Positions 13,820 to 54,545 of a stretch of 64,000 nucleotides of DNA are shown piece after piece. The stretch comes from Hirudinaria manillensis (lineage: Eukaryota > Annelida > Clitellata > Hirudinida > Hirudinidae). The notes beneath the pieces were generated by a model. The model searched no databases, was not told where the DNA came from, and saw only the letters and a list, made by a program, of their open reading frames with translations. Each line of letters opens with the position of its first letter. Position 1 is the first letter of the stretch. The position numbers and the translations under genes are program-made. The stretch spans positions 250,501 through 314,500 of the forward strand of contig CM067526.1 in NCBI GenBank assembly GCA_034509925.1, written 5' to 3'.

Positions 13820-14883
13820 CAATCCGAAAAGTTCTGAAGTCAATGCCCATCAGATTAATAGAACTTTACAAATAATAATAAACATACAACAAACAAACTG
13901 ACCTTCTGCAACTTTCTCGGCAACACTCAACTGTCATCAGTGTTTTTGTATTTGTCCATGATCTGGTACGTATTCAACAGTATTAAATGATATACTAACT
14001 GTTAATCGGTTCTTATTAAACTTATTTCTTTATGACTATGGCAAACAATCCCAAGTTAACGGGCGAAAAATATTAGCAATGGCATTTAGCGGTTACTAAT
14101 TTCGAAATGCGAAATAATATTAGGAGGATTAAACCGAACGCACCACCGGCCCTCACCTAAAGCACACGCAGTTGCAGTGTTGCATGCGAATGAGATTTAG
14201 GCCCGTCTTACCGGTTTACCACACCGTTTTGTACTTTATAATAACAATAATAAGGCACATTTGAAATGAAGCGTATGTTCACATCCCAACAAATTTTTAT
14301 ACCCCAAAAGAATTTATGCACTTCGAGAGAATCTGTCCGAGAGAAAGTCGCCTCGGAAACAGCTGTTGCTCTCTGATACTCACACATTAAGTAACCGCTT
14401 TCTTTTTGTATCCTTATGTCGTATGTCGCAAGCTGACTACTTTATTCTTTGCCACCTCCTACTAAACAAACGTAATCGGACAACTAAGTGACGTTTAATA
14501 ACAGCCAATACCGTATTATGCAAGGAGAGGTGATGCGACCATTGCTTCTACCACAGGCTACTTATGTCAACTGCTAGAAATATTAACCCACAAAATGTAC
14601 TGTGCATCACTAACCTCTTAAACCAAACACCTCAAAAAGGATTTATGCAAATTCAAGAAGTTTGAAACATGAACATTACAAAAACTTCTCATAAACCTTT
14701 ATTTGTAAACTTCAATGTGACGTAAGCACAGAGCATATTCGAAAAATCCGACCATTTCATAACATTAAGACATCATAATACTTACAATATAGCTATGTCT
14801 TTAAGCCACTATCTTACATTGCAATAAATTGACTCAAATAAACAAAGTCAAGAGCAATTGGAAAGCAACAATTGGACTCGACT
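13820..14883. other. Intergenic: DUSP10-like 5' side and SEC23 3'UTR
   Basis: Both neighbouring genes are on the minus strand. The left part should carry the promoter and 5'UTR of the DUSP10-like gene. TTTATT at 14699-14704 reads AATAAA on the minus strand about 180 nt past the SEC23 stop and is a likely polyadenylation signal. No further gene is seen. Confidence 0.5.
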
Positions 14884-22976
<8,093 letters not shown>

Positions 22977-32022: not shown

Positions 32023-33242
32023 GGACTTTATTTGCAGCTTTTTCAAAACTCGATGTTCTTGTAACGTTTAATTTTATCGGTTACGATTGATTAATAAAAG
32101 TGCGTTAGTTTTGGAGAAAAACGTTTCATTTTTTCCGGAAAATGATTCGACCAAGTGATGAAGATGAGATCTGGTGACAGTGAAACTATCCGAATCCACT
32201 ATTTTTTAAAATCCGTCCCTGTAAGTTATTTAATTCAAATTTGAGGTTGTGTAATTCAGGAAGGACGTCGGAAGTAATATTTGCTATTTGGCGAGATGGT
32301 CCGTAAATGTTGGTTGAATTTATTTCGAGAGATATTAATCACGTATTTCTAGAAAATCAGTGCAATGAACATACGACATACTACAAAATAATCTTGAGTA
32401 TTGAAACCGATTCGGAAGTTGAGATGAACGTCTACTTTAACGTCTATCGCGTGGTTCAATTGGCCTTTTCTTTTGCATTTCTCATTTTCAACTTTGATAT
32501 AATTCAAGTTGAAGGACGTAGGGCTATTACCGTCAAATTTGAATGTGTGAAAGTCACGAAACACTTCACTTTGCGAATAGTTTTCAAAAAAATATCAAAT
32601 ACTTGATAAAGTTTGTAAAATAAAATTTTCCTACACGTCTGACACAAGTCACTAGAAACATTTTTGTCTCATTCTGTTTTCAAGTTCAAGATTTAGTACT
32701 ACATGTTTTATTACATGTTTTTCAGAAATTAGAACAGTCGATATATTTTGGAATAGAGCAATAACAACAGACTAGGCACAAACTAAGCCTAGCTTGAGTC
32801 GAGCTTAGGAGCTGATGAGCCTTTGACATTTTATTTGGAACTGAACGAGTTTGGAATAATTCCATTTGTCATGAGAAGCAGCCAATCCAAATGATGTTCA
32901 TCTCGAAGATACAAGATTTTTCTTTAGAAAATCAAGAACACATGAAATATAAAATTAACATTAACTGGAGCAGGGTCCTCAATTTTTGTGATTACTCACA
33001 GGAATTACTCGCAAGCACGCACACACAACGTACACTAGACTGTCAGATCACTTGAGAACACATTCTGCCATCAAACAAACTGCAATATTACTGCGTTCCC
33101 AGCTTTTATTTTTACATAATTTATGAGTTTAATTTATTTAAAATAAAAAAGTTTACGTTTAAACTCATATTCAATTCATATCCAAGACGCAAGCTAGGCT
33201 TCGACGTTGAGAAATAAAATGACTTTTTAACCATAACCCCGG

Positions 33243-33289
33243 CCCTAACCTCTAACCTTAACCCTAACCCTAACCGTAACCTTAACCCT
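33243..33289 (-). repeat. Interstitial telomere-like (CCCTAA)n tract
   Basis: Degenerate CCCTAA/TAACC units, several perfect (CCCTAACCCTAACC) and others altered to CTTAACC or CCGTAACC. The strand shown is that reading TTAGGG. Confidence 0.85.
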
Positions 33290-35688: not shown

Positions 35689-36648
35689 GCAATCTGAGTC
35701 CAGCCCTTCTTCTTTATTACGAATGCACTCTCTAACTCAGTAAAGGACTAAGACTTACTCAGACCCACTCACACGTACACGAACCCATTCCTGTATAGTC
35801 ACAGACGTGCTTGTTATCACGCTGGCTCCATTATAGGTTAGCAAGGCTGCTGAGCTGCTGTATAAAACGATAGAAGATTTTCATTAAGCATTTGTGCTGC
35901 TTGGATACCAGTAGATACAAACAAACATCACTTGTATCCAACAAACCTTATTTGGTAGACTTTGAAGTCCAGGTGAGTTCTGTCATTAAATATGGAATAC
36001 ATATTATCTTATTTTTCAATGAAATATTTTATACATTTCTTGTTAATCGTTAATCTACGATTAAACAGCGATTAATCTGCGATTAAACAGCGATTACATT
36101 GTCAAATATGCGTATTTAACGCTAAAAATATTTCTTAATCGATTCACCAATTTACAAATTTTCACAGAAAAGTCAAATTTTTTATCTTAAAGCATCTTAA
36201 ATATCCAGGTGTGTCGATGGAAAATCACTTAAATTAAAATTAATTAATTCGGAATTAATTAATTAATCGATTAATGTCAAATAAATAGTTAAAATAATTA
36301 AGTAAAATGTTATTTCAAATAATAATAGTAAAATTAAAAACATAATTTAATCGCCAGGAAATATTAAATTAATAATATAAATGTTATTTTATTAATTTAT
36401 AAATTTAACAAAATTCTGAAGCGCCCTCTTTCTTTAAATCGACGTGGAACAATTTAAGATGAATTGAAATTAAAATCAATTAAACTTTTGTCGAAATCAT
36501 AAAAAACAATTAATTATTTTAATAAATAAATAAATAAATTAATTAATTAATTGAAGTTTGATTAATTTTCATCCTAAAATGTTTGGTATCCACGAGAATA
36601 AGGACACGAGTGTTTCTGACAAAATGGCGTCAATAGGGATGCAGAGTG

Positions 36649-36650
<2 letters not shown>

Positions 36651-36679
<29 letters not shown>

Positions 36680-36850
36680 CCATATGTTATATCCCTTATG
36701 TTATATCCCATATGTTATATCCCTTATGTTATATCCCTTATGTTATATCCCATATGTTATATCCCTTATGTTATATCCCATATGTTATACCCCATATGTT
36801 ATACCCCTTATGTTATATCCCTTATGTTATACCCCTTATGTTATATCCCA
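36651..36850. repeat. (TA)n followed by a 14-bp minisatellite (ATATCCCTTATGTT)
   Basis: A 28-bp TA run leads directly into about 12 copies of a 14-bp unit whose only common variation is CTTATG versus CATATG, plus ATACC for ATATCC. It is open in two overlapping frames, giving a Tyr-Pro-Leu-Cys-type repeat. CATATG within the unit is palindromic. Confidence 0.92.
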
Positions 36851-38988
36851 TAACACAGTGTATTTCTGTCTGTCAACGATTAAATTAAGCTATTCATTAA
36901 AACTGCTTTTTATTGAAAAACTATTATAAATAAAATAATATTAATATGGACGTAAATCATGATAAATAATTAATTAATATTCAGATTAATGATTCAATAA
37001 TTGATAATTCAGGTTGAATGATTCATAATTTTTGGTCCAAAGAGTCTCTACAAAAACTCTTGAAAATCGGTTTTGAAAGCGTTAGGCGTTCATAACTTTA
37101 AGAGGAATTATTTTCTAATTTTGAACAATTAAAGGTAAAATGAAATTTAATCCGAGAACAGCCAGTATTTAATCCACACACAACTTGACACGAAAACATC
37201 AGAAATATCATAAGTTAAGCAGCTAGCAAATCTTCTCTTAGAGCTTTGACCAAAAAAAAAATTGCACGAGCGATATTTAAACAAAGGATGGATTATTATT
37301 AAAAATCCAGGTGCAACTTGTTTTTATGATTTCTTGAGTAGTGATACATCAATGTTACTTTGCAAACCACGGGTGTTTCTTGCAAAACAGCAGTCGTCTG
37401 AGGCAATACGCGCTAAGATTGTGAACAGCTTTGAACAAATTTTATCAGTTTGTCACTAATTTAAGTGCTTCTTGTACTTCAGAGATGATGATAGCGACGA
37501 CCCAATTTATTAAGTGTACTTCTACCTAATTATTCATGAAGCAGACTCAATGGAAATACTCTAAGAGTATCCGCTCTTGAGTTGATTTTTAGTTTTATGG
37601 ATAAAAAACAGGATTCGCATTTCAAGTCCTTAAATTCCTCTCGAAACTCTGAGCCGATTCGAGTTAGCTGATTGATGGAATTCTGCTGAATTTATCTCCT
37701 GATAAATATTTTTTTATAGTCGTTCAGTGGCTCGGATTGGTTTCGGAAGTAAATTTTAGCATTCGTTAATCGTCCAATTAGAACCAACAACAGAAATTTT
37801 TATTTCTCGAATCACAAATTCAAATAGCAAAATGGTCGCATAAGGCGGCCCTTTAGCTGTGAAAAAGATTCCTTTCTCCGTAACAGGATGTGTAAAACAA
37901 ACATCCTAAATTCATAATGATCTGCCAACAAGGACTTATATCATTAACAAACTCTGGCTGAGGCAAACCATCTTCTCAGCAGATATCCTTGAGTTAATTA
38001 CATCATGACGAGGAATCTATCGGTCTCCCTGCGCATGTTTGAATTATTCGCGAATGGATTTAAATTATTTGATAGCTAATTTTGTTTAAATAAATAATTT
38101 TTTAATGGCATTATTGCTTAAACAACTCCTGGTGAATAATATTTACTTTGGACTTCAAGTCGTTCAAGAGCTTAACCACTCGAAAAACAGGAAAGTCATT
38201 GAAAATTCCGCCATCATATGATGAGAATGTTTCCAATGAAATAATTAAACTAATAATATAATTAAATAATTTAATTAAATAATAATTAAATACAGAAAGC
38301 AAAATACATGTTTTCAACAAACAGTCATCTACGTACAGAAAGTACAATCCTTTTTCTTTTTCTTCTTCTGAGAAACTGATAAACAAGAGTCACTCGAGCA
38401 TGCAATCTTGATTCGCCCTCAATTCGCTCATCGGCATTTTTTCGAATGACTAATTCCAATGATTTTCGACCATTTGGATTAAAATAATTTCAACTTTTTA
38501 TAGCAATTTACTTTTGCCTCAAATTAATTGAAATGATTTGTCATAAAATTCCGTTGAAGTAATAATTGGTTGTCTGCTGTTCCCATCTGTTGCTTCATTC
38601 GTGGTCCTCGGAGAAATTAATTCAAACATTTTAAGTGCTTTCTGAACAAAAAAAAACGGCACAATTAAATCAATTAAAGCATTAAATTATGGAAGATTAT
38701 CACATCGGGATGCCACTTTTGTGTATTATTATCTCATTCAGAACTCGCATTTAAAATTTGTAAAACTTAAATCCGGAAATTAATGCAAATCAATTCTTAT
38801 TTCACCGTCAGCAGGCAATTATCGTCCTTTCCTACAATTAAATATCAATTTAATACACGAATTTAAGAACGAAATGTGAAAAAAAATCACAAAATCTTGG
38901 AATTTTTTTTTTCGAAACGCTTGATGAAAGTAATAGAAACTCTTTCCACTTTTTACAGTTAGAAAGTCCATCAGAACAATCCGTCAAC

Positions 38989-39312
38989 ATGTCTGGGGAA
39001 TTCAAGCAGGGACTTTTTGGTTGCTTCGGCGATTTTAAGGTTTGCATCATTACCTACTTCGTGCCCTGCTACACCGAAGGAAAGATCGCAGAGAAGGTCG
39101 GAGAGGACTGCCTGCTCCAGGGTCTCGTCATGTTGGTGCCGATAGCCAATTTAGTCTGCATGATCTTGATTAGGCAAAAGGTCAGGCAGCAGAGGAATTT
39201 GGCGGGTTCAACAGTTGGCGACGTGTTTTCCATACTCTGTTGTGCCGAGTGCGCCCTCTGCCAAGAGGCCGTCGAAGTGAATGCATTCGACGATGCTATG
39301 GCCAGAAGTTAA
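38989..39312 (+). CDS. PLAC8/cornifelin-family cysteine-rich protein, copy 2
   Basis: Intronless, 107 aa. Blocks: MSGEFKQGLFGCFGDFKVC, YFVPCYTEGKIAEKVGED, hydrophobic LVMLVPIANLVCMILI, basic RQKVRQQ, and GDVFSILCCAECALCQEAVEV with the C-terminal NAFDDAMAR block. The sequence just before the ATG (ATCCGTCAAC) is also found before copy 4, marking a shared promoter-proximal or 5'UTR segment. Codons here are more GC-rich than in copies 3 and 4. Family function is uncertain; membrane-associated Cys-rich proteins are typical. Confidence 0.92.
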   Translation: MSGEFKQGLFGCFGDFKVCIITYFVPCYTEGKIAEKVGEDCLLQGLVMLVPIANLVCMILIRQKVRQQRNLAGSTVGDVFSILCCAECALCQEAVEVNAFDDAMARS

Positions 39313-40619
39313 AGGGGAAATTACCAGGATCAAAGGGATGACGACGATGAAAACGATGAGGAGGAGGAGGAGGAGGAAGTGGATGACAATTGGATTCCTA
39401 TTTTGTTGTTATGGCGATACTTCGATAAAGGCAATTATGGCGTAATGTTTGTAGAATGATTACTAGCGTTTATTATTATCATTGCTATCGCTACTATTAT
39501 TATTATTTATTTATTATTATTTTTTTATTATTATTACAGTCAGACAATAAGGAGAATATCGGATAAGAGTGAAACAACTTCTAAATTAGAAAATTAGGAA
39601 ACCCTGCTAAACTCTCGTTTACGCATACGAAAAGCGTTTAAAAGTGCACTTTTTTTTTATGCCGCCTTTGATCCTCTCCCTCTCTCTCCATGTTTATCCA
39701 TTTCATTCAAGTTATTTTTGCAGACATATTCTCGAGCCTGTAACCGCCTGATATTAATTTTGAGTCACGCTATTGAATGACTGATGGAGAGCGTCAATAC
39801 GAATGTTATTGTCCTCAGTGCTATAAATAATTTAACCTTTACTTACAAGCAAAATGAAATAAATTCTAAAGATAATTCCAACCAATCATCAGTGAAGTTC
39901 AACGAGGACAGTTTGACAATTCCCAACACTCAATATACCTTGCCAATCTTAGAGGTTTCATATCGTGTCGATAGAAATCTAATTTTAAACCAATATTAAT
40001 TATAAATATTTACTTATTTTCATTTAAATATAAATTATTTTATCAAACCTATTGTTTCAATCGTATGGTTTATCATCGGTTTGTGAATGGTTTTGCCATG
40101 CTTTGTTTTTGGGACTTTAAGTAAATTTTGGCGCAACTTTCTCTGCTTAGAAATAAAATTATCTGCTTTTTCATCAAAGGTTTTTTGCTGAAAGATTTTG
40201 ACGTTGGAGGCGCTTGCTCTTGTTTTCAATAAATTTCAATAAATCCGTTGTCTGGAAATGAACTTGTTGTGCTGGTTTCATCACTGGGAAGTTGGTATCG
40301 TTGGTTGGTAAAGCGGGATTTACGTAATTAAATCATATTTTCAGTTATTTTCAAATACTTTAACAGCCTTAAACAGGGTGAGGCACTGGCAGATAATGAC
40401 TGACCAGCTGCCATTTTGATTGACCATGTTTATTTAGCCATGGTTTGATGAAACTTGTCGTCACAGTAATTAAATTGGTACAATAGGAATGGAAACAACA
40501 TTATATTATAAATGTAATTATAAATGTAAATATTATAAATAATATATAAAATCAACAGGATGTGACTTATGTCATAAAACGATAACATTTATCATTCTTA
40601 TTATTGAGTCAAAAATATT

Positions 40620-40620
<1 letters not shown>

Positions 40621-40688
<68 letters not shown>
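40621..40688. repeat. (AAT)n microsatellite
   Basis: About 22 uninterrupted TAA triplets. Confidence 0.95.
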
Positions 40689-41918
40689 TTAATGTCATGT
40701 AAACGAAATCAACATGTTTTCAGACGACTGTTAATGTTCATTCATTATTCACAGCTACTTGCAGGATTAATTGTTAAAACAAATTGATTAAATAATTGAT
40801 AAGCAGATTTGCATAGAAGCTGAATATACTTCTCCATTCGATGGGGGTTTTTTTTTATTTCAAAATATTTATCGTTTTTGGTCAAATTTTTAAAGTTTAT
40901 TTTTAGAGGCGGTCAATGACAGATGAATTTTTTGAACCTTAAATCGTGTCGCTGAATGTTTACTGCGTTAACTTTGATTGTCTTTGATTAATGCTAGTGC
41001 AAAAGGACTCGAATTTCCAAACATTTTAAAATAAATCAAAGATTTTCCTAACTAAATTCACATCCCAAGAGGAAAAAGGAGATCATGAAAATGAAAATCT
41101 TAAAACGATGCTAAAGAATTTATGACTTGTCGCTATCATCGACCTTTGATCATCGCTCACTGACATTGTTCATTAAATGTCTTTGAATCCTTTTAAATAT
41201 TAAAGATTAAATATTAACGATTAATGGTATCCAAAACTAAACTCAGTCACGTCATATGTTTACTTTCACAAATTTCAAAAGACCAACGTTGAGAATTTCT
41301 TTTAAGTTTGGACTTAAAAGTTCTGAATTTGGTCTAAAACTTGCAATGTATTGTCTATAATTTGCATATGATTTAGTACTGCGTTAACTATTTGCAATAT
41401 ATTTGTCACTTACATTAGCCTAATTATCATCTTGGTTCATAAATTCACATGAACGTCACAAGACGATTGGTTTAAGATTCAGTTGAATGAATTTTGCAGA
41501 TACAGATTTATATTCGGTTAGACTTGAAGAGTTTTTACGTTTTGGATTTGTAAAGATTGATAGCCGTCTGTTTCTGTCTTTAAAACTTTAAAATATCTTT
41601 AAAAAATAGGAAATCTTGTCCTTATGTAAGGTTAAAAGGTTAAAGGTTAAAAAATAATTAAGATGTAAGGAATTTCAACATTAAATTACAGAATGTAAAC
41701 CATTTTTATTAAAATCAATTTTAGTCGGTTTACTATTCGAATCTACTTTTAAACATTGACGATTTCGATATCATTTCATTAAGGCATTTACTGATAGAAA
41801 TTCATTTTTAATTGGAATTCTATGAAACAGAAAATTAAACTCACGATTTTTCAAAATAAAAAGATTAAAATTTTCAAAATAATTTCTAAATATGTTCGAG
41901 TGTATGCACAACTGTTTA

Positions 41919-41942
41919 TATATATATATATATATATATATA
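41919..41942. repeat. (TA)n microsatellite just upstream of PLAC8 copy 3
   Basis: Twelve TA dinucleotides about 45 bp before the start codon of PLAC8 copy 3. It could affect promoter or 5'UTR function, but there is no direct evidence. Confidence 0.9.
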
Positions 41943-41987
41943 CATACATTTTTTTAAATCATCATCATCAACAGGTAACACGTTAAT

Positions 41988-42311
41988 ATGTCTAGACAAT
42001 ACAAACAAGGACTGCTTGGATGTTTCGGTGATTTGAAAGTCTGCATCATCACATATTTTCTGCCCTGCTACACCGAAGGAAAGATTGCAGAGAAAGTTGG
42101 AGAGGATTGCTTCACACAAGGATGTCTGACGTTGGTGCCATTCGCTAACTTTTACTTCATGTTCAAGATAAGACAAAAGGTCAGGCAGAAGAAAGAGTTG
42201 GAAGGATCCTCTTTGGGTGACTTCTCTGCCATATTTTGTTGCAATGCCTGTGCTCTCTGTCAAGAAGCAGTCGAAGTCGATGCTTTCGACAATGAAATCA
42301 TCAGGATCTGA
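41988..42311 (+). CDS. PLAC8/cornifelin-family cysteine-rich protein, copy 3
   Basis: Intronless, 107 aa, with the same blocks as copy 2: FGDLKVC, YFLPCYTEGKIAEKVGEDC, hydrophobic centre, GDFSAIFCCNACALCQEAVEVDAFD. It differs from copy 4 at about 15 of 107 residues, almost all in the second half; the first 70 nt of the two reading frames are identical. It ends in NEIIRI where the other copies have a basic -AR end. Immediately upstream is a CAG/GTAACACG-like junction, so the 5'UTR could be spliced. Confidence 0.92.
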   Translation: MSRQYKQGLLGCFGDLKVCIITYFLPCYTEGKIAEKVGEDCFTQGCLTLVPFANFYFMFKIRQKVRQKKELEGSSLGDFSAIFCCNACALCQEAVEVDAFDNEIIRI

Positions 42312-42552
42312 GGAGGACTAATTTGATAATGCGATGATGGCAATGACTATTTGATTCCTAAAAAAATTTTCAATCATTTTTTGTCATCCATTTTATAATC
42401 ATTGTTTTCGTCAATAACTTGAATTTTTTTTTTCTTATCACCTCTTAATAATTCCCACAAAAATATTAACATTTCCTTGTCGAAGAAATCAAAGCACATT
42501 TGAAAGTCCTTTTTATAATCTTTAATCCGTCATCAACACATAATCCGTCAAC

Positions 42553-42876
42553 ATGTCTAGACAATACAAACAAGGACTGCTTGGATGTTTCGGTGATTTG
42601 AAAGTCTGCATCATCACATATTTGCTGCCCTGCTACACCGAAGGAAAGATTGCAGAGAAAGTTGGAGAGGATTGCTTCACACAAGGATGTCTGTCATTGG
42701 TGCCATTCGTCAACATTTACTGCATGTTCAAGATAAGAGGGAAGGTCAGACAGCAGAAAGAGTTGGCAGGGTCCCCATTGGGTGACTTCTTTGCCATATT
42801 TTGTTGCGATGCCTGTGCTCTCTGTCAAGAAGCAGTCGAAGTCGATGCTTTCGACACTGAGATGGCCAGGAAATAG
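42553..42876 (+). CDS. PLAC8/cornifelin-family cysteine-rich protein, copy 4
   Basis: Intronless, 107 aa, 565 bp downstream of copy 3 and clearly its tandem duplicate. Carries the CxxxC, IAEKV and CCDACALCQEAVEV signatures. Two CCGTCA-like repeats precede the ATG (AATCCGTCATCAACACATAA then AATCCGTCAAC). The short gap before the gene leaves little room for an independent promoter. Confidence 0.92.
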   Translation: MSRQYKQGLLGCFGDLKVCIITYLLPCYTEGKIAEKVGEDCFTQGCLSLVPFVNIYCMFKIRGKVRQQKELAGSPLGDFFAIFCCDACALCQEAVEVDAFDTEMARK

Positions 42877-43895
42877 TGGATTCCACGAACATGGCGATGA
42901 TGATAATGATGGCGACGATAACTAAATTCTGTTATTGTTAAGTTAATGTTAGCAAACCCCTTTTCAATTCTTGTGGTTAGATAATATTAGATAAGATGAC
43001 TTCCATTCATTGGTTCGCTTTCTGGTTTATGTACATTTTTCCATCTTAGTTACAATATAATCACCAATTAATGTAATGAATATAATTGATATAATGCGAG
43101 TTTTTTTTTCTGATATCGATATGGTCCTACTTTTTGTTTTTCTGTCTAAAAACTCACGCAGACGATTTTTAAGGGGATTTTGTTATCGAGTAACAGTTAA
43201 TTACGTGTTAATGTAAATTAATTTACATTTCAGAAAGTGGCCTGTACCCCTCCTGTGCCGTTCAAACTACGAATCGAGTTTAAAAATAAGTTTTGGTGGA
43301 CTGTAACTAAAATAGAGAGTTGGAGTTGCTGTTTGTTGCTCCAGAAATTTCGACCTCATTATTGCTTCAAAATTAGAATATTTTAAGATAATTTTCGAAT
43401 AATTTTCGTTCTCACGACAAACAAAATTGCATATTAGTTAACTTTGGTAATTGTCTTCAAAGCAACGCTTTCAAATAGGTTATAATTAGCCCTCTGTCGT
43501 GACCTTTGAACCCCGATGAAGTGGTTGACAAAAGCCTCTCCTCCAATAGGATGTTAGAATTAGTGACTTCCTCACATGAGAGCTGTAAACAACTACAAAC
43601 CTCGACCAGATTTTCAATCATCCTGAGATTGTTATCAGGACTGCATAAACACAAATGTAATTAAAAATTGTAATTATGCTATCGTGATTCAATCTTGAGT
43701 GTCAGTATGTGACATTTGTGACTGAAACGAATAAGCCGTGAATGAACTGCCCCTCGATGTTTCTGTTAATTTCTGATCAGTATTGGGCATTAAATATTTA
43801 CTTTTTCGGTTAATATTTAAAATAGTTTCACTTAAAAATTTTATATCATATTAATGTTTATAAAGTATCACTTGGAGCAATGAAATCCAAACTCT
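42877..43895. other. Intergenic between PLAC8 copy 4 and the mini-exon gene
   Basis: This is convergent 3' sequence: the 3'UTR of PLAC8 copy 4 (plus) and of the mini-exon gene (minus). The minus-strand frame at 43457-43654 has no splice or protein support. Confidence 0.5.
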
Positions 43896-46800
43896 TCACG
43901 GAGAATTCGGGTTCTCATAGCTGGCCATTTCTTCCTTGTCCGAATCACTTTTTACTGAAAACATTTAAAATTACTTTTATATTATTTTATAATATTTTAG
44001 TCATGCAAGGTATATAAGACAATTTATATGAATATTAGTCATTGGTAATAATATTAAAGTTATAAAAAGTTAATATTACTAATTTGTTGATTAGTCGTTG
44101 GTGGTAAGAAGTAATTGCAATGTGATTTAACGTGGCTTAAATAACATAAAGAAATTCTCCAATTGAGGATAATTTGAACAAGATTTAACATTTCTTTAAA
44201 TGGCTCTTAATGATCCTATAAACAAAAATTAAAAAAACTTGAATGAATTAAATAATAAATCAATTTATTAATTTCAGCCTTTCTTACAAGTGTCTGTAGG
44301 TTGGCTCGGATTAAGAGACTTTATTAAGGAATCACGGATTTCCTTTTCCAGGATATCAGGAGATGGAGCGCTCTCTGTGACATTGTTGACATGTTTATTA
44401 AACATAATATTTAAATTATTTCTCATTATATAATAATTATGCGCCATATTTGAATATTTATTTTTAGATCATATTTTGAAATACCCGGAGATGCTGCTGC
44501 AATGTCTTGCTTTGAGGCGTCGTTTTTAACCGATTCCGATCTTATTCTGGCTTCTAAAAATGAAATTTTTAACGAATTACTGACAAATTTACCCTTCCAA
44601 AAATAACCCAAAATGGCACAAAAATGTTATTTTTAATTCATCACTTCCACCTGAAATTTTGCTGGGCCGTCTTGACTCTCTCTTCTCTTGTTTCTGGCTT
44701 TGTTTATCTTGTTCTTCATCGGGTTCTGAAAGTTGTTCGCAAATAGATAATGAATTTCCTTTCCAAATAAATTTAGTGTTTTATTTTTATGACCTTCCGA
44801 AGGAAGGAGGCCCTCTTCTTGTAAGTTTTGTGTCTTTTTGCGCTCAAAGTGGATCTTCTCGATTTTTGCTTCCGTGACACTCTCTTCTCGAGAAACTGGT
44901 GCCAGGGAAAATGGTGCACAAAAAAAGTAATACCAAATAAAATGTTAAAATTAAAAATATTTCTCATATAATTACAATTATATTTTCATTTATAACAATT
45001 GAAATTAAGACTTGTTTAAGCAGCAGTTTTTCTGCAGAAAATGTGGACTTTTTCGGTCTTTTATTTAAGTTAATTGAGAAATAAGACATTTAAATCTTTT
45101 CTATTCGCAGAATTATCGGCATTTCGATAATCAATTGGACGATGTAATTGAATCGCGTTGAAACCAATCTCTCACTCATTTTCGATGATTTTCCAGAAAT
45201 TAATCTCTCCACGACAGACTCAGCTTTCCTGTTTTCTGAATCTGTTCGACAATAAATAATCATTTACAGTAAAAGGCAAACAACAAGAATTTAAAGGAAT
45301 AGTTTACATTACAAATGTAATGGGTTATTAACATGAATAATCATTATCGAACAAGTGCTTCTAACGCATGCGTGAAGATTTAGCGGACAAAAGCTTTCCA
45401 TGAATTGATTCTTTAACAGACTTTTTATGATCTGGAAAATTTATGAAATTTAATTAAAAAAAAAAATGGAGGAATGTGGGAGTCTCAGAACCTCGACATT
45501 CAGGTTGCTTGTCAAAGCTATTCACTGCTTTAATTTCGTGCTTTATTTATTTATGTTAATTATGCTTACTTCATTGCTTATGCTAATTAGCTTACTTCCT
45601 TGTTTGGATGACTTACCTTCATCTTTTGACTTTTCGTCATCACCTTAAAATTTGGTTATTAATTTAAGAAGAAATCATATAATAATCATATAACAATAGG
45701 GTATAATATTATGTCAGTGTTTAATAATAATAATAATAATAATAAATAGTATTATTAAATAGTATTATTAAATATTAATTAATATTATTATTAAATTATA
45801 ATCATTGTAACTAAAGAGTTGATCGTCTTGTTGCTTTATGCTGTCAGCTTCTTTGGTCGAGGCTAGAACTCCTAGAAATTCAATGAATTGTTTCTTAATC
45901 CGATTAAATATATTTTAAATTTAAAATATTTGTTTGCACTATATTTAATGAACCTCACCTCAATGTCTAACACGTTAAATTTATATTAGTAACTATATCA
46001 TATTTTTTATATTTTATATTTTATATTATATTATATTAGTAACTATATCATATTTTAATTTATATTAGTAGTTATTATTATTATTATTATTATTATCGTT
46101 ATTGTGTTAATTAAGTTTTTTTAATCTGGTCATTCGAACCTTCGCCAGCCTCCATCTGCGTTTTGGGACTGATGCCAATGCTTAGAGAATTTGTTTCTAT
46201 AGAAATAAATGGAATTTGCATATTAATGGAGACGGATTTCTTTTAAGCAAATGACATGATTTGAATAAATTAATTAATTATTGTAATGTATTCATTAATT
46301 AATATTCATTATAAATGAATAAATTAACTATTTTAATATTATACATTACAACCTCTGGCACGTTCTTCTTGCTGTTTAATGCTTAATTCTTTTTGTGGTG
46401 AAGCACCTTCAATAAACAAATCAACGAGAGTTGATTAATAACAATTTATAATAACTGTTTTTATTAACAATTAGTAATAATTTATAATAAGTTTTTATTA
46501 AAAGACTACTGTAGATTAAGTTACTGTAAGCCGCTGACTGAGATAATTATGACATCTTTAATAGTTATCAATTGATAATATTGATATTAATTTATCACTT
46601 GCGACTTATAATAACTGATGGTCACCAGCACATTATGTTGTTATGAATAAAATTGCAGTGAGGTATTACCTCCTGAGACAGGTTTTGAAGATTTCTTTGC
46701 ATGCATGGAAGAGGTCTTGGATTCTATCGAAACAATTATTTGTTTCATGCACGAAGTTAATTAAGAATGCTTTGATTGTAATGAATGACTTAACATGGCA

Positions 46801-49641
46801 ATTAGGTTATTGGTAACATTATTAATTATATTAGTTTATTCAAATAAACCTCTACCAGATTCCTCTTGGCGTTTACTGGCATTTAGTTCTGGTTGTGGGG
46901 AAGAACCTTCAATTACAATTGAGGAGGAAAATGATCGATAATTCGTGATAATTAGTCTTTAATTTGAGAATAGAATCAGTTACTTGGACTTACTGTTAAA
47001 TAAACATAAGTTATTAATTTAAACATTTATTAATCAGTAATAAAATAATAATAATAATATTAATGATGATAAGTGACGATAATAACTGGCACGTGATGTT
47101 GTCTTGTTGAAAAAAAAGAAAGTCTTACCGTCCAAAGCAGGTTTTGACGATTTCTTTGCTTCCTTTGTGAGGAATTCTGTTGAAATAATTGTTTTCTTCA
47201 TGCATATTAATGAAGAATAATTTAAATTTAATGAATCCTTAACATGGTAATTATATTAATTTATTCCAATAAACCTTTGACACATTCTTCTCGGGGCTTG
47301 GCTTTTACATCTTCTTCTTTCAGTGGAATAGCTTAACATTTAACATCCACGTTTTATAATTAATTTGCAAAATTGGTTAACGTTGTTGTCGATACTAGTT
47401 TATGCATTTAATAGCAATCTATTTTTAATAAATATTTAAATATTTTTCAACAATTTATTTTTCTTCTCATGAACATGAGAATATACTTGCTTTTGAAGAA
47501 AATGGAAGATGGCGATTTCATGGAGGTCTTGACTAAAACCAACACTCAATTAATTATTCCATTAAAAATAAATATTTAAAAAAAAATAATACAATATATT
47601 TATTATTTGGTTCTGATTTTCATAGACGATCGAGTCAGACTTGACACGATTTGTAAGTTCTGAATTGAAAGGGATTCTCTTCAACAATTTCTAACTACCA
47701 GGAGGACGTTTGGTCTTCTTTGCTTCCTCTGCCTCAATTCTTCTGATCAATATCGGTGGAACTATTAGTTGTAAAGAATTTCATTATTTAATAATTTGAA
47801 CTTTTAATAATAATTTTTTTTGTGTAAATAACAAAATTAAATATGAAAGATAGAATATGGCGTAAACAGTTGTTAAGATGACTAGATGTTAATAAATAGG
47901 CATTAAATCGATTACAAAAATCATTACCGTCTTCTGAGTGCTTCCAAAAATCTTCGCTGGACGCTATCAAGCAAATTAACACACATAGCTGTGGTTAAAT
48001 ACTGAATTAATTAATATAAAATTTATTATTAAAAATTAATTCCAACTCGAATATTTTGTGGTCCATCCAGCAATGACAGGAAGGTCAACGGGAACCTCCC
48101 ATAACCGAGTATTGGGAAAATCCAGAAAGAAAATAAAGCAAGGCTCCAAAGCGAAATTAAATGTTTAAATTAACTTTTAATAAATTATTATTCAATCCCA
48201 TCAGTGATGGGCCATCACACAGGATGAAGTTGCAAAATTTAACAATTACTTTTATTTTCACCTTTGCTTGTTGCAGGGATATCCTCTCTTATTACTGTAA
48301 ATGAAATTTTATTAATAAGAGTTAGACATAAAAGTGCGTACGCAATTATTTCGTGACATATTTTTTTTCTATAATTTCATGAAAATGTCGTAATATTTAG
48401 TTTGGAAATTTAAAATTTAAGTTGTGAAAAGTCAGACCAACCATCCCTTCTTCTCAGTTGTTCGCACAGACACTGGAAGTTCTTCTCCAGGTTTTTAACG
48501 ATGTTTAGGATCTCGAACAGAACACTTTCCTGGATTTTCTTTTGTGTGTCCATCTTTGAGAAGTTTTTAACAAAATGAAATATAAAATTTATAAAAAATA
48601 CATTAAATATAAAATATGCAAAAAAAGATGAAATGTAAAACTGAATCATAATTTTTTTTTGTTTTGAAATTATGTCACTTTGAAACAGAGAGTTTCTACG
48701 TACCCCGTAATATGCTTGGATCGAACAATGATTGAAGTGTTATGGTTCAAAAATGTTGTTGTTGTTGTTAGGCCTTTGGGTTAAGAACGCGGTACACTCA
48801 AACCAATTCAAGTTGGAATGACTTAGAAATGCTAAATCTCATTCCAAGGCTTTGAAAATTTAATTCTAATTGATTAATATTCTATCTGATGTTTATTCTG
48901 CTAGTGACTGATGAGGAAATTAAGTTCATGTCATCACAACCTCTGTTAAATTATCGTGTGGCATGGCATTACGCTTTGTCGAATCTTTTAGAAAATAAGT
49001 AAATCACATTAATCAAATAAATTAATTAAAATATTAATGAAATAAAAAAAATGCAAGCTTGTAACTAACCTCTCTGCTTTGCCGACTCTTTGAAAGCAAA
49101 TATAGAAAGCGAGAATGAATTTAAACAAAAAAAGATTAAAAGTGAACTTCCATTTTAACAGTAACATTATTTTTAAATGAAACTCTACAAGTCTTTTCAA
49201 ATCATTTAAAAAACTTCTATGCTCGACCTTTCTGAAAGTCATCCCATTCGGTTCTCTGCCTTTCGATTGTTTTACAGAGATCCTTCAAACACCTGTTGTA
49301 CACTGCGAGAATAAACTGCTTGCGAATATGCATAAATGGATTCTACTTGCAATAATAAATACATTACTCATGACTTTTATGATACTTATGGTCACTTTTT
49401 CTCCAAAGAATCATGTATCATTCTAAAGTCTATCTTAATGTCCGACTTTAACTCTATTATTCAATAAAATTAATAATTTATTATAATGAGAGTTCATGAA
49501 CCTATATAGTAACGTACATAAATATATTCATTTATTAACATGTAATGTCTCCCTCTTACATTCCATGTTGAACTTTTGCTTGGCCTTGAGGCACTCTCCG
49601 TACTCGCCTCTTGATCCTGAAATATTTTCTCTGGCTGACAT
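43896..49641 (-). CDS. Unrecognised gene built of 23 mostly symmetric mini-exons
   Basis: Minus-strand model, 451 aa: 49560-49641, 49228-49302, 49070-49087, 48941-48984, 48442-48553, 48262-48294, 47928-47963, 47699-47761, 47491-47532, 47275-47331, 47129-47176, 46856-46906, 46670-46723, 46353-46406, 46140-46196, 45812-45862, 45617-45643, 45176-45235, 44794-44895, 44651-44725, 44485-44553, 44288-44374, 43896-43954. Every junction is phase 1 except the 48941/48553 join (phase 0), and the frame stays open throughout. The N-terminus (MSARENISGSRGEYGE, then NRCLKDLCKTIERQRTEWDDF) is helical-looking; exon 5 is also helical (LFEILNIVKNLEKNF). The rest is disordered and rich in Lys, Glu, Ser and Gln, with related exons (KKSSKPV/KKSSKPA; GASPQKELS/GSSPQPELN). 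No signal peptide. Exon 47491-47532 appears to use a GC donor (GCAAGT). If the last intron is not spliced, a stop at 44274-44276 ends the protein earlier. I do not recognise the family. Individual exons are less certain than the overall pattern. Confidence 0.7.
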
Positions 49642-50218
49642 ATTTACGGTTCTTATTTAAAATTTATGTGATTTAAAAAGTATTCATTTTTTAAATGTAT
49701 TTCTGTAAAACGGTTCTTCTCTCAAAACATTTTATGTTTTTCGATTCGTTGACGTCTGCTCGTCGGCGCGTCCAAATTAATTCTTTCAAAAAATAAAAAT
49801 ACGGATTAAATATTTTTAATTAAACGATGTGAATTTTTAAATCTAACAAAAGGTCAATCCAGGTCAAACAAAATAACAAAATAATGTTAGGGTTGTGGTA
49901 AGACCTAGTATTGGGGTTAGGATCCTACTAATGGTATGAAATTAGGGTTAGGGTTAGTGTTAGGGTTAGGGGTAAGATTTAGGTGAGTGGTAGAGATAGA
50001 TTTTAAGGCACGATTGTATTTCCACTTTTTCAAGAATTATATATTTTATATATGTGCCTTTAATAATATTTCATTATTATTTATTCGTTTTCAAATAATT
50101 GCAAGTAACAATTTAATTTATAATCCTTTTAATTAAAATATAATTTATTAGAATGTGAAATATTTCAACAATAGTAGGAACGAAAAACGAAATTCTAAAA
50201 ACCTATATCTAGAAAAAC
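49642..50218. promoter_or_regulatory. Divergent intergenic region with telomere-like tract
   Basis: This 577-bp gap separates the start of the mini-exon gene (minus) from the start of the first Ig/ephrin-like gene (plus), so it should contain both promoters. It holds a degenerate TTAGGG tract at 49942-49974, with further GTTAGGGTTGTGG and GGGGTTAGG units just upstream. No specific promoter element can be asserted. Confidence 0.4.
49942..49974 (+). repeat. Interstitial telomere-like TTAGGG tract
   Basis: Units TTAGGG, TTAGGG, TTAGTG, TTAGGG, TTAGGGG in tandem. Opposite orientation to the tract at 33243-33289. Confidence 0.85.
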
Positions 50219-52407
50219 ATGAAAACAACAACAGAGACGTTTCAAATCAAATCATTTTGGGACTCATTTGCGTGCCATTTTAAGAAATCTTTAGAATTTC
50301 CTGTAATGTCTTTTCCATGCATCAGTTCGAATCTGATTCATTTCATTATCCAATCTCGTCTCTGCTCTTGGATTTTGGCAGCGAACATCATTGAACCCGA
50401 TTCTAGGACTTTCCTCAATTTTGAAAAAGCCTATGAATTCACTGGAAAGAAAATACCTCATGTGGTTTACGTTCAAGTAGTTGAAGTAACACATGTTTAA
50501 AAGTACAATTTTGCGATTACCTTTTGAAATTTAAAATCAGCAAAAATTTGCCATTATCGTCTCAATTTTTCTTAATAAATCAGAATTTAAAATCCATTTT
50601 GAAATTGGCAACTTAAATTTATTTTCGAAGAGAATTTGTTTTTAATCTCCATTCCAAAAATGTGGCTGACAATTTTTCAAGGATATCGTTGATGAGTCCA
50701 TAGAATTGAAAATTAATTTCTATAAGTCATATTTAATTTCCAGCACAACGTGACAACAGCCCGTGTGTCGTGTAGCACCAATCCAGGTGTGATTTTCAAC
50801 ATGGAGGGGGGTGATGATTGCGATTGGAGAAAGCCAGATGGTCTTCCGGTCAGCGAGAAAAGAATGCTAGTTAGTAGGTCACTAATAACTACAATCTCAA
50901 TACTGAAATTATCATCGACACTTTACGAGCTAATTTATTTTATAATTTGTCCCCTTACTTCAAAGTTAATCATCTCCGGAAATTCAGGTCGATAAAAATT
51001 CGTGCAACCTGGTGATGATGAATCCCAAAACTAGTCAGTCGGGTATCTACTCTTGCATATTGACGGCCAACAATGGACTCAATAGACACACCTTTAAGAG
51101 ACACATAATCGTCTACAATGTACCGGAATATTTTCTCCGGTATGTGGTGAGGTTTCTGACATTTTCTTGCAGCGCTGGTCTACTTGAGAAACTCTTGCTC
51201 GAGTTGAAGATTATATTCTGTCCAGCAAAGCCTTTTGGATGTAAATTCCAGGTCCAAATAACGGCTTGTTCATCCCGGGAGCAGGATTTCTGGAAGACCC
51301 TAAATTTCAATGAAAACTCAAAGGTTTGATGTAGCAGTGGCTTGTTTATTAGTTTATTACCAATTTTTAAGACTTAATTTGATGTAAAAGTAATTCATGA
51401 TTTCAACTTGTCCATTTCTGTACAATGTAGAATTTACATTTAAACTTCTCAGTCAATTGCAACCTACGAAGTGACAAGACGTAACGATCCAAAGATTCAG
51501 TTGCCGATGTGCGAAGTGGAATGCATTAGGAAGGAATCCATAATGATTCTCATGGATCAGGATTATATCGATTCAGTTCTTCAAGTTAAAGCCAACAGGG
51601 AAATTTTCAGAGAGCTCACAGGTCTACTTCGATTAGATGTCTTAAAAGAATTTGAAGTTAAAGAAACCTAAGTTAAAGGAGTTGAAATCATAAATAAGAG
51701 AATTTTAAGCTTACGATTTGTGCAAGTGCCACAAGTTTTATATTTGAATTTTAAAACATGTTGAAGGGCTCATTCTATTGACCGACCTGACAGAAGAAAA
51801 GGTTGAAGGCATCTGCAAAGAAGGATTTTTCATCTTCCAAGCTAAAGTTTGTTTACCTTGTCCTCAGGGCTACTACCGCAGCAAAAACATGTCCAAATGC
51901 GAGCCTTGTGGCTACTTTTACTACCAGCCACAAATCTCTTCCACATTCTGCTACAGATGTCCGAAACTTGGTTTTTCCACTTTTGTGGATAAAAAAAGCG
52001 CTCTAGAATGTGTCCCTTTGTACATGTCATGGCAAGGAGTGGTGGCCATTTCATCGGTGGTCATTCTCTTGATAGCTGGCCTCGTGAATGGATGGTGCAC
52101 TTGGTTCTACGTTGCGTTGATGGATTGCTTCGCACTAAAATATTGCTTAGGCAGAGAACCGAGGCTAACCAAAGAAATGGCTTTCGCCCCCTTAACAACC
52201 GAAGAACCCTCCACAGAAAATGATGGTTCAACAACAGAAGTATCCCAAGGATCTCTGAAGGAGATCAAGAAGTTACTTTCAAAAGTCCCAAAAGAATTAA
52301 GAAAAATGGATGCATTCACAAAGGAAGATATGGAGTTTCTCAAAAACGACCTGGAAAATATCAAGAAAACAAATGACGCAGAAATGATAAAATCATCAGA
52401 ATCTTAA
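50219..52407 (+). CDS. Ig-like plus ephrin-receptor-like Cys-rich membrane protein, copy 1
   Basis: Plus-strand exons 50219-50476, 50744-50869, 50988-51323, 51453-51621 and 51767-52407 (509 aa if the first ATG is right). Exons 2-3 complete an Ig-like domain (VSCST, CDWRKPDG, SQSGIYSCIL, KRHIIVYN). Next comes a region shared with copy 2 (VPEYFLRYVVRF; CEVECIRKES). The last exon has a Cys-rich module (GICKEGFFIF, VCLPCPQGYY, CEPCGYFYYQP, CYRCPKLGFS, ECVPL) of the ephrin-receptor-like/GCC2-GCC3 type, a transmembrane helix (VVAISSVVILLIAGLV) and a charged cytoplasmic tail of about 110 residues with KEIKKLL and KEDMEFLKND helices. No kinase domain. A type I surface receptor is inferred. The start is uncertain: exon 1 has only a weak signal-peptide-like segment (FIIQSRLCSWILAAN). 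Neighbouring copy 2 lies 386 bp downstream. Confidence 0.75.
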
Positions 52408-52793
52408 AGAATAAAGCCACGGAGGCATCGATTGGACTACAAAGAACTTCTGAGATCCATCCAAATTCCACAGTATTCCGCTCTTGATTGGATATTCCTC
52501 GACAGTCAAAACTTTCCCAACCCAAGTTTTGCTGACCTGAAAAATCTTGATGTAGACGATATTTAAATAAGTAAATAATAAAAATCTTTAATTAAAATTT
52601 TTTTAGTTTTTATATTTTATGTCGACAAAAAAACTTCAACGCTTATATTCGAATTGTTTGCAAACAATTTCTGCTCTCAACCGTTAATTCAGTCGAGATG
52701 CCCTGATATTTTACAATTTTCTCAAATTCGGCACATACGTTCGAGCAATAATATGTACAATTAATTACCTTATCGAAATAAAAATAAAAACTG
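52408..52793. other. Short gap between the two Ig/ephrin-like genes
   Basis: This 386-bp interval holds the 3'UTR of copy 1 (AATAAA-type sequence near 52575) and the promoter of copy 2. No further exon was found. Confidence 0.5.
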
Positions 52794-54545
52794 ATGATAC
52801 TAATGGCTGTCCTTCACTTTGCTATCGAAGTTTCCTGCTACTTGAGGGAAGACAAAGATACCAACAAGTTTAAAGCAGTTGACATTCACGTCAAACAACA
52901 TAGCGTGGATTTCTTTAGGGGCGCCTATGCGACCCATGTGGCCAATCCGACCTATATCCAGTACGAAATGAGGGCAAAAGAAGTCATACCCTGTTTTGAT
53001 GAAAGGGATGTCACAAGTATGCCCCTAGGTTCGATTTACAATTGGGTGACGAGTACAATGCATGCCGTTCGACAAAGGAGCATGAGACCACAGACTACAG
53101 GAGAGTAAGCTAATTCCTATATTTATTCTCTGTATTTATATTCTTAAACTTAAAGTTTATAATCTGACCAATTCAATTTTTTGTTTTAAGATTAGAAGTT
53201 ATCAATGCTACGTTGGAAGATAGCGGCTTCTACAGATGCATAGTCACCTCTTCAGAGGCCAATATCAGACTTGTCTTTAACCGACCTATAATCGTATACG
53301 GGGTGATTCAATTGATCGGCCATTTAGATCTTTAGATCTTACTTATATTACTCAAAAATATAATAAATCCAGTGGTAATACTTTATTCATTACTGTAACA
53401 AGTGGAAGGGTCGATTGGTTACAATCAAGAACCTACTCCCTGCACATAAAAATGACATCAACCTTCTAAAATTCAAACAAAACTGTTTTGTATTTAATAA
53501 ACAACTCAATTTAATCATTGTAGATTCCAGAATATTACCTAGTGAGGGATATGACATTTCGAAGCAATAGGAAAGATAAGAAGCTGGCAGAGCAGATTTA
53601 TGCCATGGTTCGACAGAGTTTTTGCAGAGGAAGTCACATTGGCTGCTTATTCGTGTTCAGAGATAAAGGCTTCGAGACTAAGTTAGGATTTCATTTTGTA
53701 AGTCAAAATTATTTCATTTTTACTCATTTGGCTACATAACCAATACTTTAGTAGGATTTTTTTATATCACTGCTAAGATGTAATGTTTATTATTGGGTAA
53801 TTAATGACATTTATTCATTATTAATCATTTATTACTTAATCACAACCAGTACACCATGGAGATGAAGCAAATCTTAGATCCTCACTTTCGTCAGCCTAAA
53901 TGCGATCCCGCCTGCATCAAACAAAGTGCCCTGAACTACATGGCGTTCGGCGAGATAAGGACGCAAACCTTTCAACACTTCAGATGGAAAACTGTAGAGA
54001 AAATCAAAAGCACAACCAAGTTCATCTTCGAGGGCGGAGAAGATACCTTTCAAATTTATGGATGGTGTAGGGATGGATTCTTTCTGTGGAGGGAACGGAT
54101 TTGCCTTCCGTGCCTACCGGGCACCTACGGACGGAAAAGGTCGTGCCGGAAGTGCGGGCTCATGTCTTATCAACCCCATTTCGCTTCTAAATCCTGCAGG
54201 AAATGTCCAAGACTAGGTTTTTCCCTTGACTTTGGTAAATCTGATCCAGATGAGTGCATCCCTTTCAGTAACAACAGACTGGGCAAAACATTCTTTATTT
54301 CACTTGCCTTCTTAGTTTTTCTCATCCTCTGGATCTTTTCCCTTCACTGTGGTCTTATGCCATGCATTTACAGGCCAGATAGAAATAAGGGCAGGCTGAC
54401 TTACAAGGATCAACAATATTTGAAAACCCTAGAGGCCCACGTACGTAAAACTCTGCAAATAAAGCAGCTTCTCAAGAAAGCAAAAACCGTCAAAAAGAAA
54501 CTCATAAAAAATTACGGAACACAGAAAATACACACAAACGATTGA
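52794..54545 (+). CDS. Ig-like plus ephrin-receptor-like Cys-rich membrane protein, copy 2
   Basis: Plus-strand exons 52794-53104, 53191-53302, 53524-53697 and 53850-54545 (430 aa; phases 2, 0, 0). The start has a plausible signal peptide (MILMAVLHFAIEVSC). The Ig-like domain ends with INATLEDSGFYRCIV and RPIIVYG. The middle region (IPEYYLVRDMTF; CDPACIKQSA) aligns with copy 1. The Cys-rich module (GWCRDGFFLW, ICLPCLPGTYG, CRKCGLMSYQP, CRKCPRLGFS, ECIPF) precedes the helix FFISLAFLVFLILWIF and a strongly basic, Lys-rich tail. Intron positions differ from copy 1: copy 2 has an intron after VYG that copy 1 lacks and lacks the intron that splits copy 1 before its Cys-rich module. Convergent with NKAP, 178 bp away. 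Ligand and partners are unknown. Confidence 0.8.

What the first reader, a model, noticed from the sequence alone, without database searches (positions are those of the whole stretch)
43896..49641. Unrecognised gene made of symmetric phase-1 mini-exons
I could chain 23 small exons on the minus strand, of which 19 are phase 1-1 and multiples of three (18, 27, 33, 36 nt up to 102 nt), with no stop in the chain. Any of the 19 could be skipped or duplicated without breaking the frame. Such a layout recalls schistosome micro-exon genes and other variant-generating genes, but this protein has no signal peptide and no similarity I recognise. It may be a combinatorial-splicing system for a disordered, charged protein. 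The chain is seen in the sequence; isoform diversity is inference.
Basis: partly seen in the sequence, partly recalled or inferred. Interest (0 to 1): 0.88.

Follow-up and report, generated by a model that had tools for sequence, protein, structure and literature searches.

The report
Annelid gene of uniform-phase mini-exons
A worm gene with no recognised relatives appears to be chopped into about two dozen tiny exons that nearly all share one reading phase, partly built by copying neighbouring exon pairs, so pieces could be lost, copied or skipped without wrecking the protein; whether the animal uses this to make many protein versions is not known.

Summary
I rebuilt the chain on the minus strand (49641..43896): 24 exons, 475 aa, no internal stop; 22 of 23 introns are phase 1 and 20 exons symmetric 1-1. 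A free-phase exon finder not told the phase returned 19 of the 24 exactly and 3 with another end, missing 2. Score 65.9 against at most 12.6 in 100 dinucleotide shuffles; a run of 16 same-phase symmetric exons against at most 5 in 25 other chains of 251.5 kb. Codon usage supports the frame. E10-E11 is a tandem copy of E12-E13, introns included. The host is an annelid, probably a leech. No paralog was detected, and no Pfam or PDB relative. No signal peptide was seen and only 4 of 24 exons are micro-exons, so it is not a schistosome-type MEG. Best reading: a fast-evolving intracellular coiled-coil/disordered protein whose linker grew by duplication of phase-1 exons. Splice sites are weaker than in SMC3/SEC23, which permits regulated skipping but does not show it. 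Several boundaries and the 3' end are uncertain.

The parts
49560..49641 (-). E1, 82 nt, first coding exon with ATG (MSARENISG...); ends in phase 1. The DP used a shorter form from an in-frame phase-1 acceptor (49616-49560)
49228..49302 (-). E2, 75 nt, phase 1-1
49070..49087 (-). E3, 18 nt, phase 1-1
48941..48984 (-). E4, 44 nt, phase 1-0 (weak donor; among the least certain internal exons)
48442..48553 (-). E5, 112 nt, phase 0-1, helical-looking segment; begins with ATG, so could also be an alternative start. E4+E5 together are symmetric
48262..48294 (-). E6, 33 nt, phase 1-1
   Evidence: dropped in the wide fit at the highest penalty
47928..47963 (-). E7, 36 nt, phase 1-1
47699..47761 (-). 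E8, 63 nt, phase 1-1
47491..47532 (-). E9, 42 nt, phase 1-1, needs a GC-AG intron (gcaagt)
   Evidence: not found by the GT-only DP
47275..47316 (-). E10, 42 nt, phase 1-1; first exon of duplicated unit A
47129..47176 (-). E11, 48 nt, phase 1-1; second exon of unit A
46850..46906 (-). E12, 57 nt, phase 1-1; unit B. A donor 6 nt upstream (exon end 46856) is also in frame; the DP used a shorter form, 46888-46856
46670..46723 (-). E13, 54 nt, phase 1-1; unit B
46353..46406 (-). E14, 54 nt, phase 1-1; unit C
   Evidence: dropped in the wide fit
46140..46196 (-). E15, 57 nt, phase 1-1
45812..45871 (-). E16, 60 nt, phase 1-1; poor donor, but at the position homologous to E14's
   Evidence: dropped in the wide fit
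45617..45643 (-). E17, 27 nt, phase 1-1
45366..45431 (-). E18, 66 nt, phase 1-1; similar to E19
   Evidence: not found by the DP
45176..45241 (-). E19, 66 nt, phase 1-1; similar to E18
44794..44895 (-). E20, 102 nt, phase 1-1
44651..44725 (-). E21, 75 nt, phase 1-1
44485..44553 (-). E22, 69 nt, phase 1-1
44288..44374 (-). E23, 87 nt, phase 1-1
43896..43954 (-).
43504..43640 (-). possible further exon E25, 137 nt, phase 2-1, open for 45 codons; the DP took only 43640-43601
   Evidence: tentative
43267..43364 (-). possible alternative last exon E26, 98 nt, ends in TAG
   Evidence: tentative, read by eye
46425..47336 (-). tandem duplication: units A (47336-46925, E10-E11) and B (46924-46425, E12-E13), introns included

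Best explanation
A fast-evolving protein-coding gene of an annelid (probably a leech), with no paralog detected. It encodes an intracellular protein of about 475 aa: helical, coiled-coil-like N-terminal segments (E1-E5) followed by a long charged, Ser-rich disordered linker. Because nearly all its introns are phase 1, an exon or exon pair can be copied, lost or skipped in frame. The linker grew by tandem duplication of such units (E10-E11 and E12-E13; older E12/E14, perhaps E16; probably E18/E19), after which copies drifted about as fast as their introns while the frame was kept. Supported by computation: coding frame, uniform phase, the A/B duplication, no signal-peptide exon seen. Inferred: helices, disorder, intracellular tether or scaffold role. 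Not shown: transcription, alternative splicing.
For: Free-phase DP recovers the chain and its phase; score 65.9 against at most 12.6 in 100 shuffles; a run of 16 same-phase exons, E6 to E23, against at most 5 in the 25 other chains. Codon model trained on other ORFs favours the frame, 141 against 33 and 57. Units A and B align over exons and introns (local score 110; maximum of 200 shuffles 33); identity 53 of 90 in exons, 205 of 307 in introns; homologous exons differ in length by multiples of 3 (48/54; 42/57/54/60), the two intron pairs compared do not. No paralog detected in the 148.4-Mb assembly; no Pfam or PDB relative. Charge-hydropathy on the disordered side, 38% charged residues. Intron phases differ from two conserved genes: 22 of 23 phase 1 against 3 of 30.
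Against: No transcript, second individual or second species could be examined. Donors (median 1.5 against 3.3, P 0.0009) and acceptors (-0.1 against 2.9, P 7e-5) are weaker than at 30 SMC3/SEC23 junctions (those were picked by a scanner that rewards strong sites), so some boundaries may be wrong. With stricter settings the locus was not among the ten chains printed for any mode. In the wide fit E14 and E16 were skipped too. That exon lengths are multiples of 3 is partly built into how I chose exons. The shuffles destroy the GC contrast, so they overstate significance. The paralog search works exon by exon and would miss a diverged relative with such short exons.
Confidence: 0.66

Rival explanations
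1. Combinatorial-splicing gene: the symmetric mini-exons are regularly skipped in different combinations to give many isoforms of one disordered protein.
For: 19 of 20 symmetric exons skip cleanly and only 9 of 231 possible forward joins create a stop; splice sites are weaker than in SMC3 and SEC23; exons are short and 60% purine.
Against: Uniform phase also follows simply from exon duplication. Weak sites may partly reflect low local GC (introns 24% here, 35% in SMC3 and SEC23). No isoform data.
Confidence: 0.15
2. Secreted effector gene like schistosome MEGs or aphid bicycle genes, used against a host.
For: Layout of many small symmetric exons; probable leech with at least 63 antistasin-domain matches; fast exon drift.
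Against: No hydrophobic start in E1 and no signal-peptide-like phase-1 first exon in 3.9 kb upstream (0 found, about 1.2 expected by chance); only 4 of 24 exons at most 36 nt; no paralog detected; phase 1, not the phase 2 of bicycle genes.
Confidence: 0.05
3. Partly wrong model: a real gene, but several of the 24 exons are mis-bounded, or the locus holds two genes (one starting at the E5 ATG), or it runs on to E25/E26.
For: Phase-0 junction and an ATG at the start of E5; open 45-codon E25 beyond a weak donor that removes the stop; E9 and E18 missed in all fits, E14 and E16 in the wide fits.
Against: The local DP joins E1 to E24 in one chain at all three penalties tried and adds only part of E25.
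Confidence: 0.12
4. Chance or pseudogene: open segments picked from AT-rich DNA, or a dead gene.
For: AG and GT are frequent; some splice sites are poor; stricter scan did not rank it.
Against: frame kept across drifting copies.
Confidence: 0.02

Closest known systems
Schistosome micro-exon genes (MEGs)
   Same: Many symmetric exons that can be skipped in frame; fast divergence
   Different: MEGs: about 80% of the coding region in 6-36 bp symmetric exons, and nearly all encode secreted or anchored proteins (PMC5825161, passages read); here 8% (114 of 1428 nt) and no signal peptide seen
Aphid/scale-insect bicycle genes
   Same: Many small internal exons all of one phase (average about 17 exons), extreme sequence divergence (PMC9168663, passages read)
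   Different: Bicycle exons are mostly phase 2, many with signal sequence and CYC motif, in gene families; here phase 1, no signal peptide seen, no paralog detected
Elastin, titin PEVK region, triadin (recalled, not tested)
   Same: Disordered, elastic or charged segments encoded by many small symmetric exons of one phase
   Different: No sequence similarity to a solved protein; no transmembrane-like segment in the hydropathy profile

Membership tests
Schistosome MEG | Most of the coding region in symmetric exons of 6-36 bp | tested here: not met
   4 of 24 exons, 114 of 1428 nt
Schistosome MEG | Signal peptide or membrane anchor | tested here: not met
   no hydrophobic segment in the profile; 0 candidate signal-peptide exons in 3.9 kb upstream, about 1.2 expected by chance (a crude hydropathy test, no SignalP)
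Schistosome MEG | Symmetric exons | tested here: met
   20 of 24 exons phase 1-1
Schistosome MEG | Protein variants by alternative splicing | not testable with these tools
   no RNA data
Bicycle genes | Internal exons in phase 2 | tested here: not met
   22 of 23 introns phase 1
Bicycle genes | N-terminal signal sequence | tested here: not met
   as above (crude test)
Bicycle genes | CYC motif | not tested
   no model of the motif at hand
Genes grown by duplication of uniform-phase exons | Neighbouring exons homologous and of one phase | tested here: met
   A/B units and E12/E14 above all 200 shuffles

The most novel reading that the evidence does not exclude
An annelid, intracellular counterpart of micro-exon genes: a single locus whose weak-site phase-1 mini-exons are combined in many ways by regulated splicing, tuning length and phosphorylation of a disordered linker attached to helical ends.
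Probability: 0.12. Interest if true: 0.78.

Novelty: new variant of a known kind. Interest (0 to 1): 0.45.

Why it matters
[quoted passage not shown] This one is in an annelid, shows no secretion signal, and catches tandem exon-pair duplication at a stage where introns can still be aligned. It could show how orphan disordered proteins lengthen exon by exon, and whether such a layout is used for splice diversity.

Tried and rejected
Paralog search in the own assembly with the whole protein (18 matches, all its own exons) and with the 3' extension (5 matches: 4 its own, one at E = 2.3). Pfam and PDB: nothing above chance (best Pfam E = 0.014, 15.7 bits against a cut-off of 36.1; PDB 0.75 and 2.2). 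A strict splice matrix did not rank the locus; I therefore looked at SMC3 and SEC23 junctions, where donors are also lax. Extension of the chain below 43.2 kb runs antisense to PLAC8-like frames, and above 51 kb largely antisense to plus-strand frames; both rejected. Paper searches: 'micro-exon genes' with 'leech' gave 0 papers; a five-term search with 'annelid' gave 22, of which the 20 listed titles and abstract starts name no such gene. Searches on bicycle genes, elastin, triadin and exon phase were seen as listings only; a leech-genome search was seen as a listing and not used. Structure prediction was not used: the spliced protein is not a contiguous translation of the window.
Full report
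Setting. The window is C1:250501-314500 of a 148.4-Mb assembly in 23 contigs. Its mitochondrial contig carries COX1 (Pfam) followed by frames that I read by eye as COX2, COX3, ND6 and CYTB, with TGA read as Trp, and an ATP8-like frame between COX2 and COX3 (by eye); I recall this order as the annelid one. At least 63 antistasin-domain matches, 50 of them on C2, point to a leech (recalled association).

Observation. On the minus strand I rebuilt the chain from 49641 to 43896: 24 exons of 18-112 nt, median 58, introns 68-387 nt, 475 aa, one terminal stop. 22 of 23 introns are phase 1; the exception is E4/E5. In one search E12 was 51 nt; alignment with its copies E10 and E14 puts the donor 6 nt further on, which I adopted. 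Both donors keep the frame.

Is it more than chance? Three tests that did not use the phase pattern agree. (1) A dynamic-programming exon chainer, free in phase, with codon usage from seven other ORFs of the window and a generic splice matrix, gave 23 exons over 43300-50300 at penalties 2, 3 and 4. 19 are identical to mine, E1, E12 and E24 differ at one or both ends, E9 and E18 are missed, and one exon at 43640-43601 is extra. 19 of the 23 are phase 1-1. (2) 100 dinucleotide shuffles of the region scored 4.2 on average and 12.6 at most, against 65.9. The shuffle removes the GC contrast, so it is a lenient null. (3) Over 251.5 kb (window plus 20 stretches of 10 kb, N excluded) 26 chains of at least 8 exons and score 20 were found; the longest run of same-phase symmetric exons was 16, and it is E6 to E23 of this locus without E9 and E18, with E12 in another form; the other 25 chains reach at most 5. 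Further, 24 of 24 exons are open in the modelled frame and 9 of 24 in each other frame; codon log-likelihood is 141 against 33 and 57 (with the 51-nt E12).

Results against. In a wider fit (36000-54000, introns to 500) the DP kept 17 of 24 exons exactly at penalties 2-4 and 16 at penalty 5; E14 and E16 were skipped each time and E6 at penalty 5. With a stricter matrix and penalty the locus was not among the ten chains printed for any mode. In a lenient scan with imposed symmetry it ranked 11th of 504 by score with 12 exons, behind chains in L041 (SMC3), the window's SEC23, and L025, L026, L029 and L030.

Splice sites. The chainer recovers much of SMC3 and SEC23. I kept 30 junctions of these two genes that lie outside gapped parts of the alignments to solved proteins, judged by eye; five of them (SMC3 from residue 824 on) lie where the printed alignment was cut off. 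Their phases are 19, 3 and 8 for 0, 1 and 2; in the mini-exon gene 22 of 23 are phase 1 (Fisher P 1e-10). Two old housekeeping genes are a narrow yardstick, and the scanner rewards strong sites. Donors and acceptors of the mini-exon gene are weaker (P 0.0009 and 7e-5; G at +5 in 10 of 23 against 22 of 30, P 0.047; G at -1 in 17 of 23 against 26 of 30, P 0.30), perhaps partly because this locus is AT-richer. Exons have 43% GC and 60% purine, introns 24% GC and 49% purine.

Origin. E10-E11 with flanking introns aligns with E12-E13 (local score 110; maximum of 200 shuffles 33); exon identity 53 of 90, intron identity 205 of 307. Unit B against C exceeds all 200 shuffles (61 against 40), mostly over E12/E14 (51 of 81 against 174 of 357 in introns). 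C against D also exceeds its shuffles (53 against 44), but that match is AT-rich and largely in introns; A against C does not (36 against 43), and A against D (45 against 37) and B against D (42 against 40) do so only slightly. E18 and E19 match at 28 of 66 positions, reached by 14 of 2000 shuffles (shuffles there are of two-base blocks). Copies therefore drift about as fast as introns, yet exon lengths stay multiples of three (42, 57, 54, 60; 48, 54), whereas the two pairs of homologous introns of A and B differ by 28 and 41 nt (from the coordinates). The first part of this is partly built into how exons were chosen.

Protein. 38% charged residues, 13.7% Ser, mean hydropathy 0.367 against a disorder boundary of 0.415 (on the 473-aa version). 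E2 and E5 look helical by eye (inference). No Pfam or PDB relative, no paralog detected. No upstream exon with a signal-peptide-like start and phase-1 donor in 3.9 kb; the chance rate of 0.30 per kb and strand would give about 1.2, so this is only a weak test.

Uncertain ends. E24's stop can be spliced out by a weak donor at 43900 (score -3.7), leading to an open 45-codon segment at 43640-43504 and perhaps 43364-43267. This would lengthen the protein and break the phase-1 rule at one junction. E5 could be an alternative start.

How it works. Best reading: a rapidly changing intracellular protein whose disordered part lengthens by duplication of phase-1 exon units. Skipping is possible: 19 of 20 symmetric exons can be left out singly without a stop, and 9 of 231 forward joins make one. 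That it happens is not shown.

Comparison. Schistosome MEGs have about 80% of their coding region in 6-36 bp symmetric exons and almost without exception encode secreted or anchored proteins (PMC5825161, passages); neither was found here. Bicycle genes share many small one-phase exons but in phase 2, many with signal sequences and CYC motifs (PMC9168663, passages). I found no paper on such genes in leeches or annelids with the two searches made. It works like these in layout; by the features tested it is a member of neither.

Noticed in passing
window 38854-39312, 41979-42311, 42544-42876 (+): Tandem PLAC8-family genes on the plus strand: the first by Pfam, the other two (110-aa frames) by likeness to it, seen by eye.
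   Followed up: partly
window 51748-52407 and 53808-54545 (+): Two related proteins with ephrin-receptor-like cysteine motifs (Pfam match over cut-off in the first only; 38 of 110 identical) next to the gene.
   Followed up: partly
window 12763-19412 (-): SEC23 gene, multi-exon; a rhodanese-domain frame lies at 12755-13849.
   Followed up: partly
window 49942-49971 and 33228-33289: Short interstitial TTAGGG/TAACCC arrays; the first lies 300 bp upstream of E1. The locus is about 300 kb from the start of contig C1.
   Followed up: partly
G000:C9:3026446-3027786: A nuclear COX1 copy scoring the same as the mitochondrial one: a recent NUMT or an assembly matter.
   Followed up: no
G000:C2:1723601-1778857: Cluster of 19 antistasin-domain matches.
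   Followed up: no
L025-L027 (C1:314501-344500): A chain resembling HSP70 in L026, apparently two copies, by eye; similar exon lengths in L025 and L027.
   Followed up: no
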